This document shows, in pieces, positions 30,585 to 41,655 of a stretch of 41,655 nucleotides of DNA (its first letter is position 1; each line of letters starts with the position of its first letter). The position numbers were made by a program, and so were the translations under genes. The notes beneath the pieces are model-generated. The model saw nothing but the letters and a program-made list of their open reading frames with translations. It did not search any database and had not been told where the DNA came from. The stretch is from positions 79,832 through 121,486 of the forward strand of contig CANQPJ010000005.1 in assembly GCA_947625755.1 (NCBI GenBank). Reading direction: 5' to 3'. Source of the stretch: an uncultured Lachnospiraceae bacterium (GTDB lineage Bacteria; Bacillota; Clostridia; Lachnospirales; Lachnospiraceae).

Positions 30585-30910
30585 GGGCATCCCTCCTTTT
30601 ATGGAATCAGTATTATTCTTAACCTGTTTTCCAATAGTGTATAGGTTATAGTTCCTGTGAAACCTAAATCTTCCGGGACAATGAGTCTCATTCTTTAAGA
30701 TATGAGCTGCGCTCCAATCTTTATAGGGAAAAAATATCTTATTGTCATCGGTATAGCTTCCTTCGAATACTATCCGCGAATAATGTACCACAATTAATGG
30801 ATGAATGCAATTCTTTTTCTAAAAATACATTACCCGGCGACTATATTTATCTTTGCAGTTAAATACAGGAAAAAGGAAGTGAAAAAAATTTATTGTCAAG
30901 CTACCAGATA
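30585..30910. other. Non-coding leader region of the pantothenate operon
   Basis: About 325 bp between the PanG-like gene and the repeat array. The reading frame of the PanG-like gene stays open for about 70 codons here but has no ribosome binding site or recognisable domain. TATAAC and TATACA near 30637-30652 on the minus strand are possible -10 elements without a good -35. No riboswitch was recognised. Confidence 0.4.
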
Positions 30911-31354
30911 TATATGTAAAATTATTGGGAAATCCATGATGGGGAGAATGTATTACATATATTCTTTGAAAAACTAGACAAGTCTATATGTAAAATCTCG
31001 GGAAATCCATGGTGAGCGAGAATGAATTACATATATTCTTTGCAAAACAAAACAAATCTATATGTAAAATCTCGGGAAATCCATGGTGAGCGAGAATGAA
31101 TTACATATATTCTTTACAAAACTAAACAAGTCTATATGTAAAATCTCGGGAAACCCATGGTGGATGTGAATCAATTACATATTTTTTTTGGAAAACTAGC
31201 TAAACATATATGTAAATTCTTGAAAAATCCATGATGAGTGAGAATGTATTACATATATTCTTTGCAAAACAAACTAAATACATATGTAAAATCTTGACAA
31301 ATTCATAGCAGGTTAAAATATATTACATATCTATATAAAATGATAAAATACTAA
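30911..31354. repeat. Tandem array of six 74-bp hairpin-forming repeats (copy A)
   Basis: Unit starts are 30911, 30985, 31059, 31133, 31207 and 31281, with the conserved start box recurring at 31355: exactly 74 bp each time. Units 2 and 3 differ at only three positions, the others more, with no length change. Each unit begins (T/C)ATATGTAA, ends its stem with TTACATAT about 41 nt on, and has a 24-nt A/C-rich linker (like TTTGCAAAACAAAACAAAT). An inner stem TCTCG/CGAGA in units 2-3 is TCTTG/TGAGA in unit 5, so pairing is kept. The array has no coding sequence. It is related to the array at 41321-41655. Confidence 0.92.
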
Positions 31355-31471
31355 TATATGTAAATTATAAACATGACAAGAAAACAGAGTTTACAAAAGA
31401 CTATTTAGAAAATAAAAAGTGTATTTCAGAACTTGCACTGAAATCAACAATTATCCTATAAATATAAAAAG
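31355..31471 (+). other. Conserved tail of repeat element copy A
   Basis: Starts with the repeat box TATATGTAA and continues into about 115 bp closely matching copy B (41206-41320, opposite strand). A stretch of about 28 bp ending in GAAATCAACAATTATC is identical. The 28-codon frame that is open in copy B starts here at ATGACAAGAAAACAG but is broken by a TAG at codon 12 and a 1-base deletion. Confidence 0.85.
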
Positions 31472-31509
31472 ACAGAACCTGTATCCGCTAATGCGGATGC
31501 AGGTTCTGT
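31472..31509. terminator. Long hairpin of element copy A, also terminator of the PPIase lipoprotein gene
   Basis: ACAGAACCTGTATCCGC (31472-31488), loop TAAT, GCGGATGCAGGTTCTGT (31493-31509): 17 bp with one G.U. On the minus strand it is followed by CTTTTTATA, so it can end transcription of the gene at 31580-32773. The base CAGAA/TTCTG is shared with copy B while the inner stem differs completely. Confidence 0.85.
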
Positions 31510-31514
31510 TAATC

Positions 31515-31535
31515 AAGGGCTTTTTTCAAACCCTT
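31515..31535. other. Small GGG/CCC hairpin of element copy A
   Basis: AAGGGCTT and AAACCCTT form an 8-bp stem with one G.U around a short T-run loop, between the long hairpin and the stop codon of the PPIase gene. A hairpin of the same position and loop type is in copy B with compensating stem bases. Confidence 0.6.
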
Positions 31536-31579: not shown

Positions 31580-32773
31580 CTATTTCGCAGCTTTTGTTGT
31601 TTCTGCCTTGGTTTCTTTCTCTGTCGTCTTTTCAGTAGCTTTTTCTGTAGCAGCTTCTGTTGTAGGCGCCTGTGTTGTAGGTGCTGAACCTTTCTTTATC
31701 TTAACATTTTCACAAATTACGTCTCTTACTTTCATTAACAGCAGATTTAATTGGATTGTGTCTTTTACAGTATCTTCACCATAATTCTTTTCTAAATCTT
31801 TGATACCTGTCCCATAATTTTTCTTGGCAAATTTGTCTGCTTCTTCTTTGTAAAGCTTATCTGCATCAAATCCTTCTTTGTCTGCTATTGCAAAAATAAT
31901 CATTCTGCTCTTCACAACTTCTTTTGACTTCTTATGCCATTCATCCGCTGACATACCTGTTACTTCTAAATATGACTTAATATCTGTAATGCCATAAGAT
32001 GAATACTGTGCAACAATAGATGATTCAGCCTCTGACTCATATTCTTTGAGCGCCTTATCATTATATTCTGATACCTTGCAGTCCTCTAAATAATTGGTCC
32101 ATAAACCATTCATAATCTTGTTATATTTTAATTCTTTTTTCTGATACTCTTTATATTCTTTTACAGTCTTTAAACCATCATCTTTATAGTTTTTCTTTAC
32201 AAAATCATCATCTAATTCAGGAGTCTGTGTTTTCTGTAAAGACTTAACCTTATAAGTAAACCAAACGTCTCTATTGGACAAATCAATATCTTTTTTATTA
32301 ATCTTTACTGTCTGGGAATAATCTTTCGGGAATTTTAATTTTTTTGTAAATGTATCCCCAACTTTATGTCCTTTCAATGCATCTACAAAACCATCAATAT
32401 ATGTCTGTCCGCCTACTGTACCGGCTGATATATCTGCTGTCTGATCTTCTGCAGAACCATCGTCAAACTTAACTTTCTTTCCATTTACTTCAATTTTTCC
32501 CGTAAAGTCAAATACAACTACGGAATCTTTTTCTATTTTACCTTTTTTTAATGTTTTTGTAGTAGAATGATTGGATAAATCAGAATCAATCGTAGTCTGT
32601 AATTCCTCATCTGTTACCTTAATATCATCTTCATATGCAGGCAATCCTTTATAATCTGCCAGCTTTACTGTCCCTAAATCTGTCTCTACGGAACCTGAAC
32701 TGGAACTGTTACAGGCTGCCAAGCTCAATGCCATTGTTGCGGATAATGTAACCGCTAAAATTTTTTTAAACAT
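31580..32773 (-). CDS. Trigger-factor-like FKBP peptidyl-prolyl isomerase lipoprotein
   Basis: A 397-residue lipoprotein foldase on the outer membrane face, likely helping exported proteins fold. The signal ends in lipobox LSLAAC with Cys21. An FKBP/trigger-factor PPIase domain follows at about 75-185 (VVFDFTGKI, YIDGFVDALKGHKVGD, FTYKVKSL), then a helical SurA/trigger-factor C-domain-like region to about 360. The last 35 residues are a low-complexity Thr/Glu/Lys tail (TTEAATEKATEKTTEK). No ribosome-binding domain of true trigger factor is present. The ATG at 32773 has AGGAG upstream. Own promoter; terminated by the hairpin of repeat element A. Confidence 0.85.
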   Translation of the reverse strand: MFKKILAVTLSATMALSLAACNSSSSGSVETDLGTVKLADYKGLPAYEDDIKVTDEELQTTIDSDLSNHSTTKTLKKGKIEKDSVVVFDFTGKIEVNGKKVKFDDGSAEDQTADISAGTVGGQTYIDGFVDALKGHKVGDTFTKKLKFPKDYSQTVKINKKDIDLSNRDVWFTYKVKSLQKTQTPELDDDFVKKNYKDDGLKTVKEYKEYQKKELKYNKIMNGLWTNYLEDCKVSEYNDKALKEYESEAESSIVAQYSSYGITDIKSYLEVTGMSADEWHKKSKEVVKSRMIIFAIADKEGFDADKLYKEEADKFAKKNYGTGIKDLEKNYGEDTVKDTIQLNLLLMKVRDVICENVKIKKGSAPTTQAPTTEAATEKATEKTTEKETKAETTKAAK

Positions 32774-40422: not shown

Positions 40423-40473
40423 TATATTATTCTAATGTACGGAAAAACAGCATAATGAAAGGAGGGCATGTAT

Positions 40474-41121
40474 ATGATTACAAACAGAATTGTAAAATAT
40501 TATGCCAGAAAAGATCCTAATATTGCCATTAAGGTAATACCGGGACATTTTGCAACAACACATTCTCATCTGAATTATTATCTGGATATGACAACTATGA
40601 AGACACGTGCAAATGAAGCAGAACGTATTGCCATAGCCATGAAAGATTATTACAATGTTATGGGAAAGCCGATTGACACCATTGTATGTCTGGATGGATG
40701 CGAAGTCATAGGAGCATTTCTCGCTAATGAATTGAGTCGTGCCGGTGTCTTATCCATGAATGCGCACAAGACCATTTATGTAGTTACGCCGGAATTTAAT
40801 TCTAACGGTCAGATGATTTTCAGAGATAACTTAAAACCGGAAGTCGCAGGAAGAAACGTATTACTTCTGCTCGCCTCTGCCACCACCGGAAAGACCATAC
40901 GAAACAGCATTGAGTGTATTCAGTATTACGGTGGCATTCTCCAAGGCATTTCAGCTATATTTAGTGCGGTTGATTCTGTTGACGGGCATCGGATTGATGC
41001 GTTATTCCGGGCAGAGGATATTCCAAAATACGAAGCATATTCCCAGAATGACTGTCCAATGTGCAAAGAGGGTAAGACGGTAGAAGCATTGGTCAATGGA
41101 TATGGATATAGTGAGATATAA
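40474..41121 (+). CDS. Orotate phosphoribosyltransferase-like protein
   Basis: A 215-residue protein with a type I PRTase-like fold. VLLLLASATTGKTIRNSIECI resembles the PRPP loop, with Thr-Thr-Gly-Lys-Thr in place of the usual acidic VDD/EDV start seen in the true PyrE at 3812-4489, so PRPP catalysis is uncertain. The hood is poorly conserved, and the C-terminus has CPMCKEG, a possible metal or redox CxxC. A bona fide pyrE is present, so this protein does something else, perhaps regulatory or salvage. The ATG at 40474 has AGGAGG 8 nt upstream; an in-frame ATG two codons earlier is too close. Element copy B follows its stop. Confidence 0.75.
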   Translation: MITNRIVKYYARKDPNIAIKVIPGHFATTHSHLNYYLDMTTMKTRANEAERIAIAMKDYYNVMGKPIDTIVCLDGCEVIGAFLANELSRAGVLSMNAHKTIYVVTPEFNSNGQMIFRDNLKPEVAGRNVLLLLASATTGKTIRNSIECIQYYGGILQGISAIFSAVDSVDGHRIDALFRAEDIPKYEAYSQNDCPMCKEGKTVEALVNGYGYSEI

Positions 41122-41139
41122 CAGATACAGACAAAAATT

Positions 41140-41158
41140 GGGGCTGTTAAAAAGTCCC
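41140..41158. other. Small GGG/CCC hairpin of element copy B
   Basis: GGGGCT and AGTCCC pair around GTTAAAA, 18 nt after the PRTase-like stop codon. Compared with copy A (GGGTTT/AAGCCC in the same gene-to-element direction), T.G became G.T and T-A became C-G, so pairing is preserved. Confidence 0.6.
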
Positions 41159-41165
41159 TGATTAG

Positions 41166-41201
41166 CAGAAGGGGTTGCCAGGAAATAGGCAACCCCTTCT
41201 G
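41166..41201. terminator. Long hairpin of element copy B, also terminator of the PRTase-like gene
   Basis: CAGAAGGGGTTGCC (41166-41179), 8-nt loop, GGCAACCCCTTCTG (41188-41201): 14 bp perfect, followed by TCTTTCTAT on the plus strand. The base CAGAA/TTCTG and the flanks match copy A; the inner stem is unrelated. Confidence 0.85.
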
Positions 41202-41205
41202 TCTT

Positions 41206-41320
41206 TCTATGTTCATTAGATAATTGTTGATTTCAGTGCAAGTTCTAAAATTACACCTTTCATTTTCTGAACAGTCTTTTGTAAGCTCTGTTTTCTTGTC
41301 ATATTGATAATTTACATATA
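41206..41320 (-). other. Conserved tail of repeat element copy B
   Basis: About 115 bp that, read on the minus strand, starts with the repeat box TATATGTAA and matches the tail of copy A at most positions, with long identical stretches such as GAACTTGCACTGAAATCAAC. It contains the 28-codon open frame. Confidence 0.85.
41216..41302 (-). CDS. Possible 28-residue peptide inside element copy B
   Basis: An open frame for MTRKQSLQKTVQKMKGVI followed by LELALKSTII, basic at the N-terminus and hydrophobic at the C-terminus. It has no ribosome binding site, an in-frame TAA lies just upstream, and the copy A counterpart is broken by a stop and a frameshift. Against translation: the identical stretches between copies extend past codon boundaries and beyond the frame. 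I consider it more likely a chance frame in a structured non-coding tail, but record it. Confidence 0.2.
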   Translation of the reverse strand: MTRKQSLQKTVQKMKGVILELALKSTII

Positions 41321-41655
41321 TTAGTATTTTATAGTTTGATGTAGATATGTAATATATTTTCACTTGCTATGGATTATACATGTATATTGGACTGATTTTG
41401 CTGAAAATATATGTAATTGATTTTCACTGATTAGGGATTTGACAAAAATTTACATATATGTTTGGCTTGTTTTGCAAATATATATGTAATTCATTTTGCC
41501 GGCTATGAGTTTGTTTATGAATTTACATATGTATTTGGTTTGTTTTGTTGAAAATATATGTAATTGATTCTCACCAGTTAGGGATTTGACAAGATTTTAC
41601 ATATATAACTGTCTTGTTTTGTAAACAATATATGTAATTGATTCTCACCAGTTAG
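41321..41655. repeat. Array of 74-bp-class hairpin repeats, copy B (inverted, runs off the edge)
   Basis: The box TTTACATATA (or close variants) ends at 41320, 41384, 41458, 41531 and 41605, spacings 64, 74, 73 and 74. Units align to those of copy A on the opposite strand; the first has a 10-bp deletion, about one helical turn. Unit stems vary in a paired manner: ATTTTTG/TGAAAAT here against ATTCTTG/TGAGAAT in copy A unit 5. One unit pairs TTCAT with ATGAA next to the outer arms, giving a nearly continuous 13-bp stem. The array continues beyond the window. Confidence 0.9.

What the first reader, a model, noticed from the sequence alone, without database searches (positions are those of the whole stretch)
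30911..31354. Array of six hairpin repeats with an exact 74-bp period
Seven consecutive boxes (T/C)ATATGTAA start at 30911, 30985, 31059, 31133, 31207, 31281 and 31355, each exactly 74 bp apart, even though outer units have diverged considerably. Every unit has an outer inverted repeat ATATGTAA/TTACATAT enclosing an inner stem and a 24-nt A/C-rich linker. Zero indels with many substitutions implies selection on length or phasing (74 bp is close to seven helical turns), or recent amplification with gene conversion. It is neither a CRISPR array nor a coding repeat, and I know no named family like it. It could be a processed small-RNA array, a protein-binding scaffold or a replication/segregation site.
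Basis: partly seen in the sequence, partly recalled or inferred. Interest (0 to 1): 0.85.

Follow-up and report, generated by a model that had tools for sequence, protein, structure and literature searches.

The report
Helically phased box arrays in repeats
A gut bacterium carries dozens of copies of a small jumping-gene-like element whose core is a row of mirror-image DNA words set at fixed turns of the double helix, which looks like a docking strip for a protein nobody has named yet.

Summary
In detail: seven boxes exactly 74 bp apart at 30911-31363. The array is one of 43 found in the genome (233 units; 148 of 190 unit spacings exactly 74). It sits inside a modular element (about 30875-31533) with inverted-repeat ends and a terminator-like hairpin, usually facing a gene's 3' end (36 of 41). 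The constant feature is a pair of inverted 6-bp boxes, ATGTAA/TTACAT, alternating at 39 and 35 bp. Five of 22 congeners and one species of another genus share it, although in that species the spacers resemble the others barely more than shuffled sequence does. Spacings that depart to the short side are mostly 10-11 bp short, about one helical turn (11 of 16). The box stem does not covary; the terminator hairpin does. This favours a DNA scaffold for an unknown protein over a small-RNA array. Nearest in design are pneumococcal BOX and the BrickBuilt MITE. No target duplication, mobilising enzyme or binding protein was found, so function is inferred.

The parts
30875..31533 (+). Whole modular element: left end, 74-bp array, tail, hairpin, right end
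   Evidence: Family alignments of 43 arrays' flanks; end search (length 659 for this copy)
30875..30890 (+). Left terminal inverted repeat (degenerate; consensus GGGACTGTAAAAAAGT)
   Evidence: 12 of 16 to the consensus; column position
30891..30910 (+). Left leader, family consensus TTTTTGTCAAGCTGCCA
30911..31354 (+). Six 74-bp units, each box F (ATGTAA) + 33-nt spacer + box R (TTACAT) + 29-nt loop
   Evidence: unit profile from 146 exact-74 units
30914..30919 (+). Box F1; F2-F7 follow every 74 bp (30988, 31062, 31136, 31210, 31284, 31358)
30953..30958 (-). Box R1 (inverted); R2-R6 follow every 74 bp (31027, 31101, 31175, 31249, 31323)
31323..31363 (+). Terminal R-F pair with its own conserved AT-rich loop
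31364..31465 (+). Tail, present in full in only part of the family's copies
31472..31509 (-). Terminator-like hairpin, read in the direction of the neighbouring peptidyl-prolyl isomerase gene
   Evidence: fold -38.9 kcal/mol, z -8.1; covarying stem across the family; the simple terminator scan did not flag it
31518..31533 (-). Right terminal inverted repeat (degenerate)
   Evidence: 10 of 16 to the consensus; column position
41140..41655 (-). Second element of the same family, inverted, cut by the contig end; its hairpin stem has a different sequence
31580..32767 (-). Right-hand neighbour: FKBP-type peptidyl-prolyl isomerase gene whose 3' end faces the element
   Evidence: Pfam PF00254, E 2e-6
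30679..30776 (-). pan motif (RF01749) of the pantothenate operon, left of the element

Best explanation
It is one copy of a dispersed, mobile-element-like intergenic repeat built as leader + n x 74-bp units + tail + terminator hairpin + right end. SHOWN: the array is a row of inverted 6-bp boxes (ATGTAA / TTACAT) alternating at 39 and 35 bp, so that like-oriented boxes are 74 bp (about seven turns) apart; this grammar outlasts the spacer sequence across species and in a second genus; the commonest short departure removes 10-11 bp. INFERRED: the boxes are duplex-DNA sites for a sequence-specific protein that binds cooperatively along one face of the helix and builds a regular nucleoprotein patch. 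Least certain: what the patch is for. My order is (a) it belongs to the machinery that spreads or maintains the element (about 0.35), (b) it serves the host as a boundary or anchoring patch behind genes (about 0.25). The hairpin end most likely terminates the neighbouring gene.
For: 43 arrays, 233 units, 148 of 190 unit spacings exactly 74 and 180 of 190 within one base. In stretches of the own genome chosen by similarity, not spacing, F->R is 39 in 177 of 203 adjacent pairs and R->F is 35 in 191 of 225, with no peak in the reversed-sequence control. Same pattern in G002, G006, G012, G013, G014: 48, 180, 221, 25, 30 hits on both strands against 379 in the own genome, none in 17 other congeners, control 0 in all 23. 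In 397 genomes of the family only G277, of another genus, stands out (14 hits), with 39/35 spacing and spacers near the shuffled level (0.33-0.37 against 0.31-0.33). Among 16 deduplicated sites with a short F->R distance before a normal R->F, 10 are 29 and one 28. R->F hardly ever departs (8 rows, 3, few of them array members by my reading). Box core columns 92-98% conserved in 146 units. Right-end hairpin: 32 two-sided changes in 12 of 16 pairs. Right neighbour's 3' end faces the element in 36 of 41 (p 8e-7). At the window's locus 11 of 11 congeners examined, including array-bearing G006 and G012, have no array.
Against: No binding protein was found, nor could presence of a gene be correlated with arrays with the tools left. 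Spacers within the genus keep some similarity (0.35-0.53 against a null of 0.31-0.37), so part of the kept spacing is common descent by tandem duplication. Some spacer columns are as conserved as the boxes (positions 10, 37, 38, 52 at 95-96%). The 11 short departures are not all independent: three in the own genome sit in the same terminal unit type and three in G013 look alike, so I count about six events by eye. Departures of +-1 bp are common. No target-site duplication (only short low-complexity matches in 6 of 43). The terminal repeats are degenerate in many copies, including this one, and differ in G277. The simple terminator scan missed the hairpin.
Confidence: 0.58

Rival explanations
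1. A minisatellite inside an old MITE-like repeat: units copy in tandem, unequal crossing-over and gene conversion keep them alike, and the exact period is inherited with no selection on phasing.
For: Tandem duplication alone keeps a period; unit number varies from 2 to 11; minisatellites inside MITEs exist (BrickBuilt, PMC4596501, abstract and passages read); spacers in the genus are distantly alike.
Against: Neutral drift should hit boxes and spacers alike and bring indels of all sizes; instead box core columns are 92-98% conserved, spacing is kept where spacer similarity is nearly gone, and short departures cluster at one helical turn. At a locus shared with G012 and G006 the box order is unbroken while spacers are about 71% alike and third codon positions of the neighbouring gene 79% (the box identity there is exact by construction of the extraction).
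Confidence: 0.2
2. A transcribed array of RNA hairpins (small-RNA precursor or structured RNA).
For: Box pairs can form 9-bp stems; a promoter-like TTGTCA-18-TAAAAT lies in the leader (10 of 12); the element ends in a strong hairpin; BOX elements are transcribed and folded (PMC3049150, abstract).
Against: Promoter-like sites are at chance number (6 found, 6.6 expected). Box stem: 2 two-sided changes and 105 broken of 1314 cells, against 32 two-sided in the terminator hairpin; stem pairs have mutual-information z between -1.7 and 1.0. No Rfam family at gathering score. RNA gives no reason for one-turn departures.
Confidence: 0.1
3. A chromosome-organising or segregation site for a host protein, spread through the genome by a mobile repeat and then kept in place by selection.
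For: Dozens of dispersed arrays; at least two loci shared with G012 (L043 = L073, also G006 L081; L026 = L151); all-or-none presence among congeners.
Against: Absent from 17 of 22 congeners, including a clade next to G006/G012, which is odd for a core chromosome function; left neighbours show no orientation preference (19 against 21 of 40); the neighbouring gene of the shared L043 locus is 91% alike between species whose isomerase is 48% alike, so transfer of that stretch between species is possible.
Confidence: 0.25
4. A CRISPR array or integron-like cassette array.
For: Regular period and short palindromic words.
Against: No unit has identical repeats with unrelated spacers: spacers within an array are homologous; 43 dispersed loci; no cas or integrase gene was sought or seen among the neighbours that I read.
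Confidence: 0.01

Closest known systems
BrickBuilt MITE of Porphyromonas gingivalis (PMC4596501; abstract and passages read)
   Same: Leader + tandem units + tail, small inverted-repeat ends, always intergenic, many copies per genome, no transposase inside
   Different: BrickBuilt units are 23 nt, head to tail without inverted boxes; here units are 74 bp with two inverted boxes at fixed spacing, shared across species and by a second genus; no comparison of sequences was made
BOX elements of Streptococcus pneumoniae (PMC3049150; abstract and section 'Three families' read)
   Same: Modular A-Bn-C plan with a variable number of central units, dispersed intergenic copies, hairpin ends, patchy distribution among relatives
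   Different: BOX has published TIR and target duplications and a predicted whole-element RNA fold; here no duplications were seen and the central units do not covary as RNA
SPRITE terminator-like repeats of pneumococcus (PMC3049150, section read)
   Same: Dispersed repeat that can act as a Rho-independent terminator, no clear target duplication
   Different: SPRITE is a single short hairpin without an array
Transposon ends with repeated subterminal transposase sites (for example IS607, PMC6188088; listing and start of abstract seen)
   Same: Several sites in a row for one DNA-binding enzyme
   Different: No transposase found; far more sites, alternating in orientation, in the middle of the element rather than at its ends

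Membership tests
MITE | Short non-coding element in many intergenic copies | tested here: met
   43 arrays of 2-11 units, neighbours judged from simple ORF picking
MITE | Terminal inverted repeats | tested here: inconclusive
   Consensus ends GGGACTGTAAAAAAGT pair; one copy is 16 of 16 at both ends (L034), many copies, this one included, are near the level of a best chance match
MITE | Target-site duplication | tested here: not met
   only short low-complexity matches in 6 of 43; hence called MITE-like, not a MITE
MITE | Autonomous parent with the same ends | not tested
   No transposase family was searched in the genome
BOX element | Modular A-Bn-C plan with variable n | tested here: met
BOX element | Sequence homology to boxA, boxB or boxC | not tested
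   BOX sequences were not compared
BrickBuilt | 23-nt unit without spacers | tested here: not met
   unit is 74 bp
CRISPR array | Identical repeats separated by unrelated spacers | tested here: not met
   All parts of the unit are homologous within arrays
Structured RNA family | Compensatory changes in the proposed stem | tested here: not met
   box stem
Structured RNA family | Match to a known Rfam family | tested here: not met
   gathering threshold: only the pan motif outside the array
Intrinsic terminator (right-end hairpin) | GC-rich hairpin followed by U-rich tract on the gene's strand, maintained by compensatory change | tested here: inconclusive
   in favour; simple scan did not flag it; termination itself not testable
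Helically phased protein-binding array | Spacing kept in whole helical turns independent of spacer sequence | tested here: met
   with the limits stated there
Helically phased protein-binding array | A protein that binds the boxes | not testable with these tools
   needs biochemistry

The most novel reading that the evidence does not exclude
An undescribed nucleoprotein system of gut Lachnospiraceae: a trans-acting protein recognises alternating TTACAT/ATGTAA boxes and polymerises along arrays that a mobile repeat has sown behind dozens of genes, so that a selfish element has supplied the genome with a dispersed set of anchoring or boundary sites whose helical geometry is under selection; losing the protein would explain why congeners have either dozens of arrays or none.
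Probability: 0.25. Interest if true: 0.85.

Novelty: new variant of a known kind. Interest (0 to 1): 0.66.

Why it matters
Small dispersed repeats of bacteria are usually read as RNA folds or as debris of transposition. Here the array's letters drift but its geometry does not, which points to a protein reading duplex DNA. If true, it gives a ready-made bait (a 6-bp box at 39/35 bp) to fish out a new DNA-binding protein, and a natural spacing series (74, 64, 75 bp) to test it. It would also show how a mobile repeat can distribute a protein platform, with terminators attached, behind many genes.

Tried and rejected
Small-RNA array: rejected as first choice because the box stem does not covary. 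CRISPR: rejected on unit structure. Target duplications: none convincing. An exact empty site from G012 for the L060 array: the two genes are adjacent there without an array, but the intergenic sequence is too diverged to place borders. Spacer comparison pooled both strands and so understated similarity; redone with the better strand and a shuffled null, which showed that spacers within the genus are still distantly related. An array at G000:C11 (L203) that looked unrelated is, read on the other strand by eye, a distant relative in its F->R spacer. The one-turn reading of longer departures was not tabulated: most of the rows span a box that has mutated. Viral contigs: no match to the four-box pattern. 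The left-neighbour test used 18 and 20 of 38, where one search gives 19 and 21 of 40; the reading is unchanged. Literature: searches found no description of this repeat; the library holds only open-licence papers.

Not done: no search for the binding protein or for transposases; structure prediction was not used; no covariance model was built; of 12 relatives' loci that held both neighbours of the window's array, 11 were read (L119 was not), and loci with only one neighbour were not read.

Full report
Observation. The array is real and as described: period 74, no indels over six units, and box pairs far above chance in the window (10 against a mean of 0.15). A second array of the same family, inverted, is cut by the right edge of the window, which is the end of contig C5.

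Family in the own genome. BLAST of the array against the genome gives 50 matches, the best other copy 82% identical (40 of 99 candidates were scored). A profile search of 42 fetched stretches gives 46 clusters and 236 units. I dropped three single-unit hits on the opposite strand, leaving 43 arrays of 2 to 11 units and 233 units. Of 190 unit spacings, 148 are exactly 74 and 180 are 73-75. Flank alignments show a common left end (GGGACTGTAAAAAAGTTTTTGTCAAGCTGCCA), a common last unit with its own AT-rich loop, a tail present in only part of the copies, a hairpin, and a right end that mirrors the left. Several arrays lie at contig ends, as expected of repeats that break assemblies.

Anatomy. In 146 units with exact spacing, the core columns of the two boxes are 92-98% conserved; other columns range from 43 to 96%. 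In all profile-defined units the F core is exact in 203 of 231. Written by boxes, the array is F-39-R-35-F. In the own genome's stretches 177 of 203 adjacent F->R distances are 39 and 191 of 225 R->F distances are 35; reversed sequence shows no peak. Like-oriented boxes are thus 74 bp apart, about seven turns of B-DNA.

Comparative test. The three-box pattern occurs in 6 of 23 genomes of the genus (own 379 hits on both strands; G012 221, G006 180, G002 48, G014 30, G013 25) and in none of the 17 others; the backwards pattern occurs in none. In 397 genomes of the family, G277 of another genus has 14 hits; six others have one each, and the backwards control has single hits in 12, so those six are chance. 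Viral contigs have none. In the Dorea the boxes are extended differently (GGTATGTAA/TTACATACC), the spacing is 39/35, and the spacers are hardly more like the others than shuffled ones. Within the genus spacers are still distantly alike, so descent explains part of the shared spacing there.

Phasing. A search for short F->R distances followed by a normal R->F gave 25 rows, 16 distinct sites in six genomes: ten at 29, one at 28, and 32, 27, 26, 16, 16. The common departure is therefore 10-11 bp. Three of the own-genome cases share a terminal unit type and the three of G013 look alike, so I judge about six separate events; this is by eye. R->F departures are few. Single-base departures exist, so the constraint is not absolute.

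DNA or RNA. Nine box-stem pairs over 146 units: 1209 of 1314 cells paired, 16 one-sided, 2 two-sided and 105 broken; the right-end hairpin: 541 of 644 cells paired with 32 two-sided changes in 12 of 16 pairs (rows without a proper hairpin were not removed). Mutual information shows no stem signal. The hairpin thus behaves as RNA and the boxes as duplex DNA.

Context. By simple ORF picking, the right-hand neighbour's 3' end faces the element in 36 of 41 cases (p 8e-7); left neighbours show no preference (19 against 21). In the window the neighbour is an FKBP-type isomerase gene, and the hairpin folds at -38.9 kcal/mol on that gene's strand, although the simple terminator scan did not list it. 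On the left lie a pan motif and the pantothenate genes.

Age and movement. At the window's locus, 11 of 11 congeners read have the isomerase and pantothenate genes side by side with no array, including G006 and G012 that bear arrays elsewhere. At L060 the two neighbours are adjacent without an array in G012. Two loci are shared: L043 with G012 and G006, and L026 with G012. At L043 the neighbouring gene is 90-91% alike between species whose isomerase is 48% alike, so that stretch may have moved between species; its third codon positions are 79% alike and the array's spacers about 71%. On the isomerase tree the bearers fall in two clades, with an array-free clade beside one of them (21 of 23 genomes, G013 and G017 missing). 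In the Dorea the arrays lie in larger repeats with different inverted ends, matched 103 times in that genome.

Reading. The best account is a MITE-like modular element, in the manner of BOX and BrickBuilt, whose core is a helically phased row of duplex-DNA sites for an unknown protein, and whose end terminates the neighbouring gene. The first half is shown by sequence; the protein and the purpose are inferred. I do not file it as a MITE because target duplications were sought and not found.

Noticed in passing
30679-30776 (-): pan motif (RF01749, 41.2 bits) ahead of the pantothenate operon; the operon's first gene here is a DUF2520/Rossmann oxidoreductase-like gene.
   Followed up: partly
41140-41655: Second element of the family, right behind the gene 40468-41121; its hairpin stem has a wholly different sequence from that of the first copy, a natural compensatory replacement.
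   Followed up: yes
L203:1669-2010 (G000:C11): A further array in the own genome with perfect 39/35 spacing but strongly diverged spacers, missed by BLAST; next to it (from 3060) an irregular cluster of boxes.
   Followed up: partly
L187:5675-6267 and L190:4877-5381 (G277): Large nested inverted repeats around the Dorea arrays, with about 100 matches in that genome, a repeat family of its own.
   Followed up: partly
L206 and L207 (G012:C34, G006:C24): Two arrays that end in the same odd F-16-R step.
   Followed up: no
C5, C20, C29, C40, C42 ends of the own genome: Arrays lie at or near contig ends, so the true number of arrays is probably above 43.
   Followed up: no
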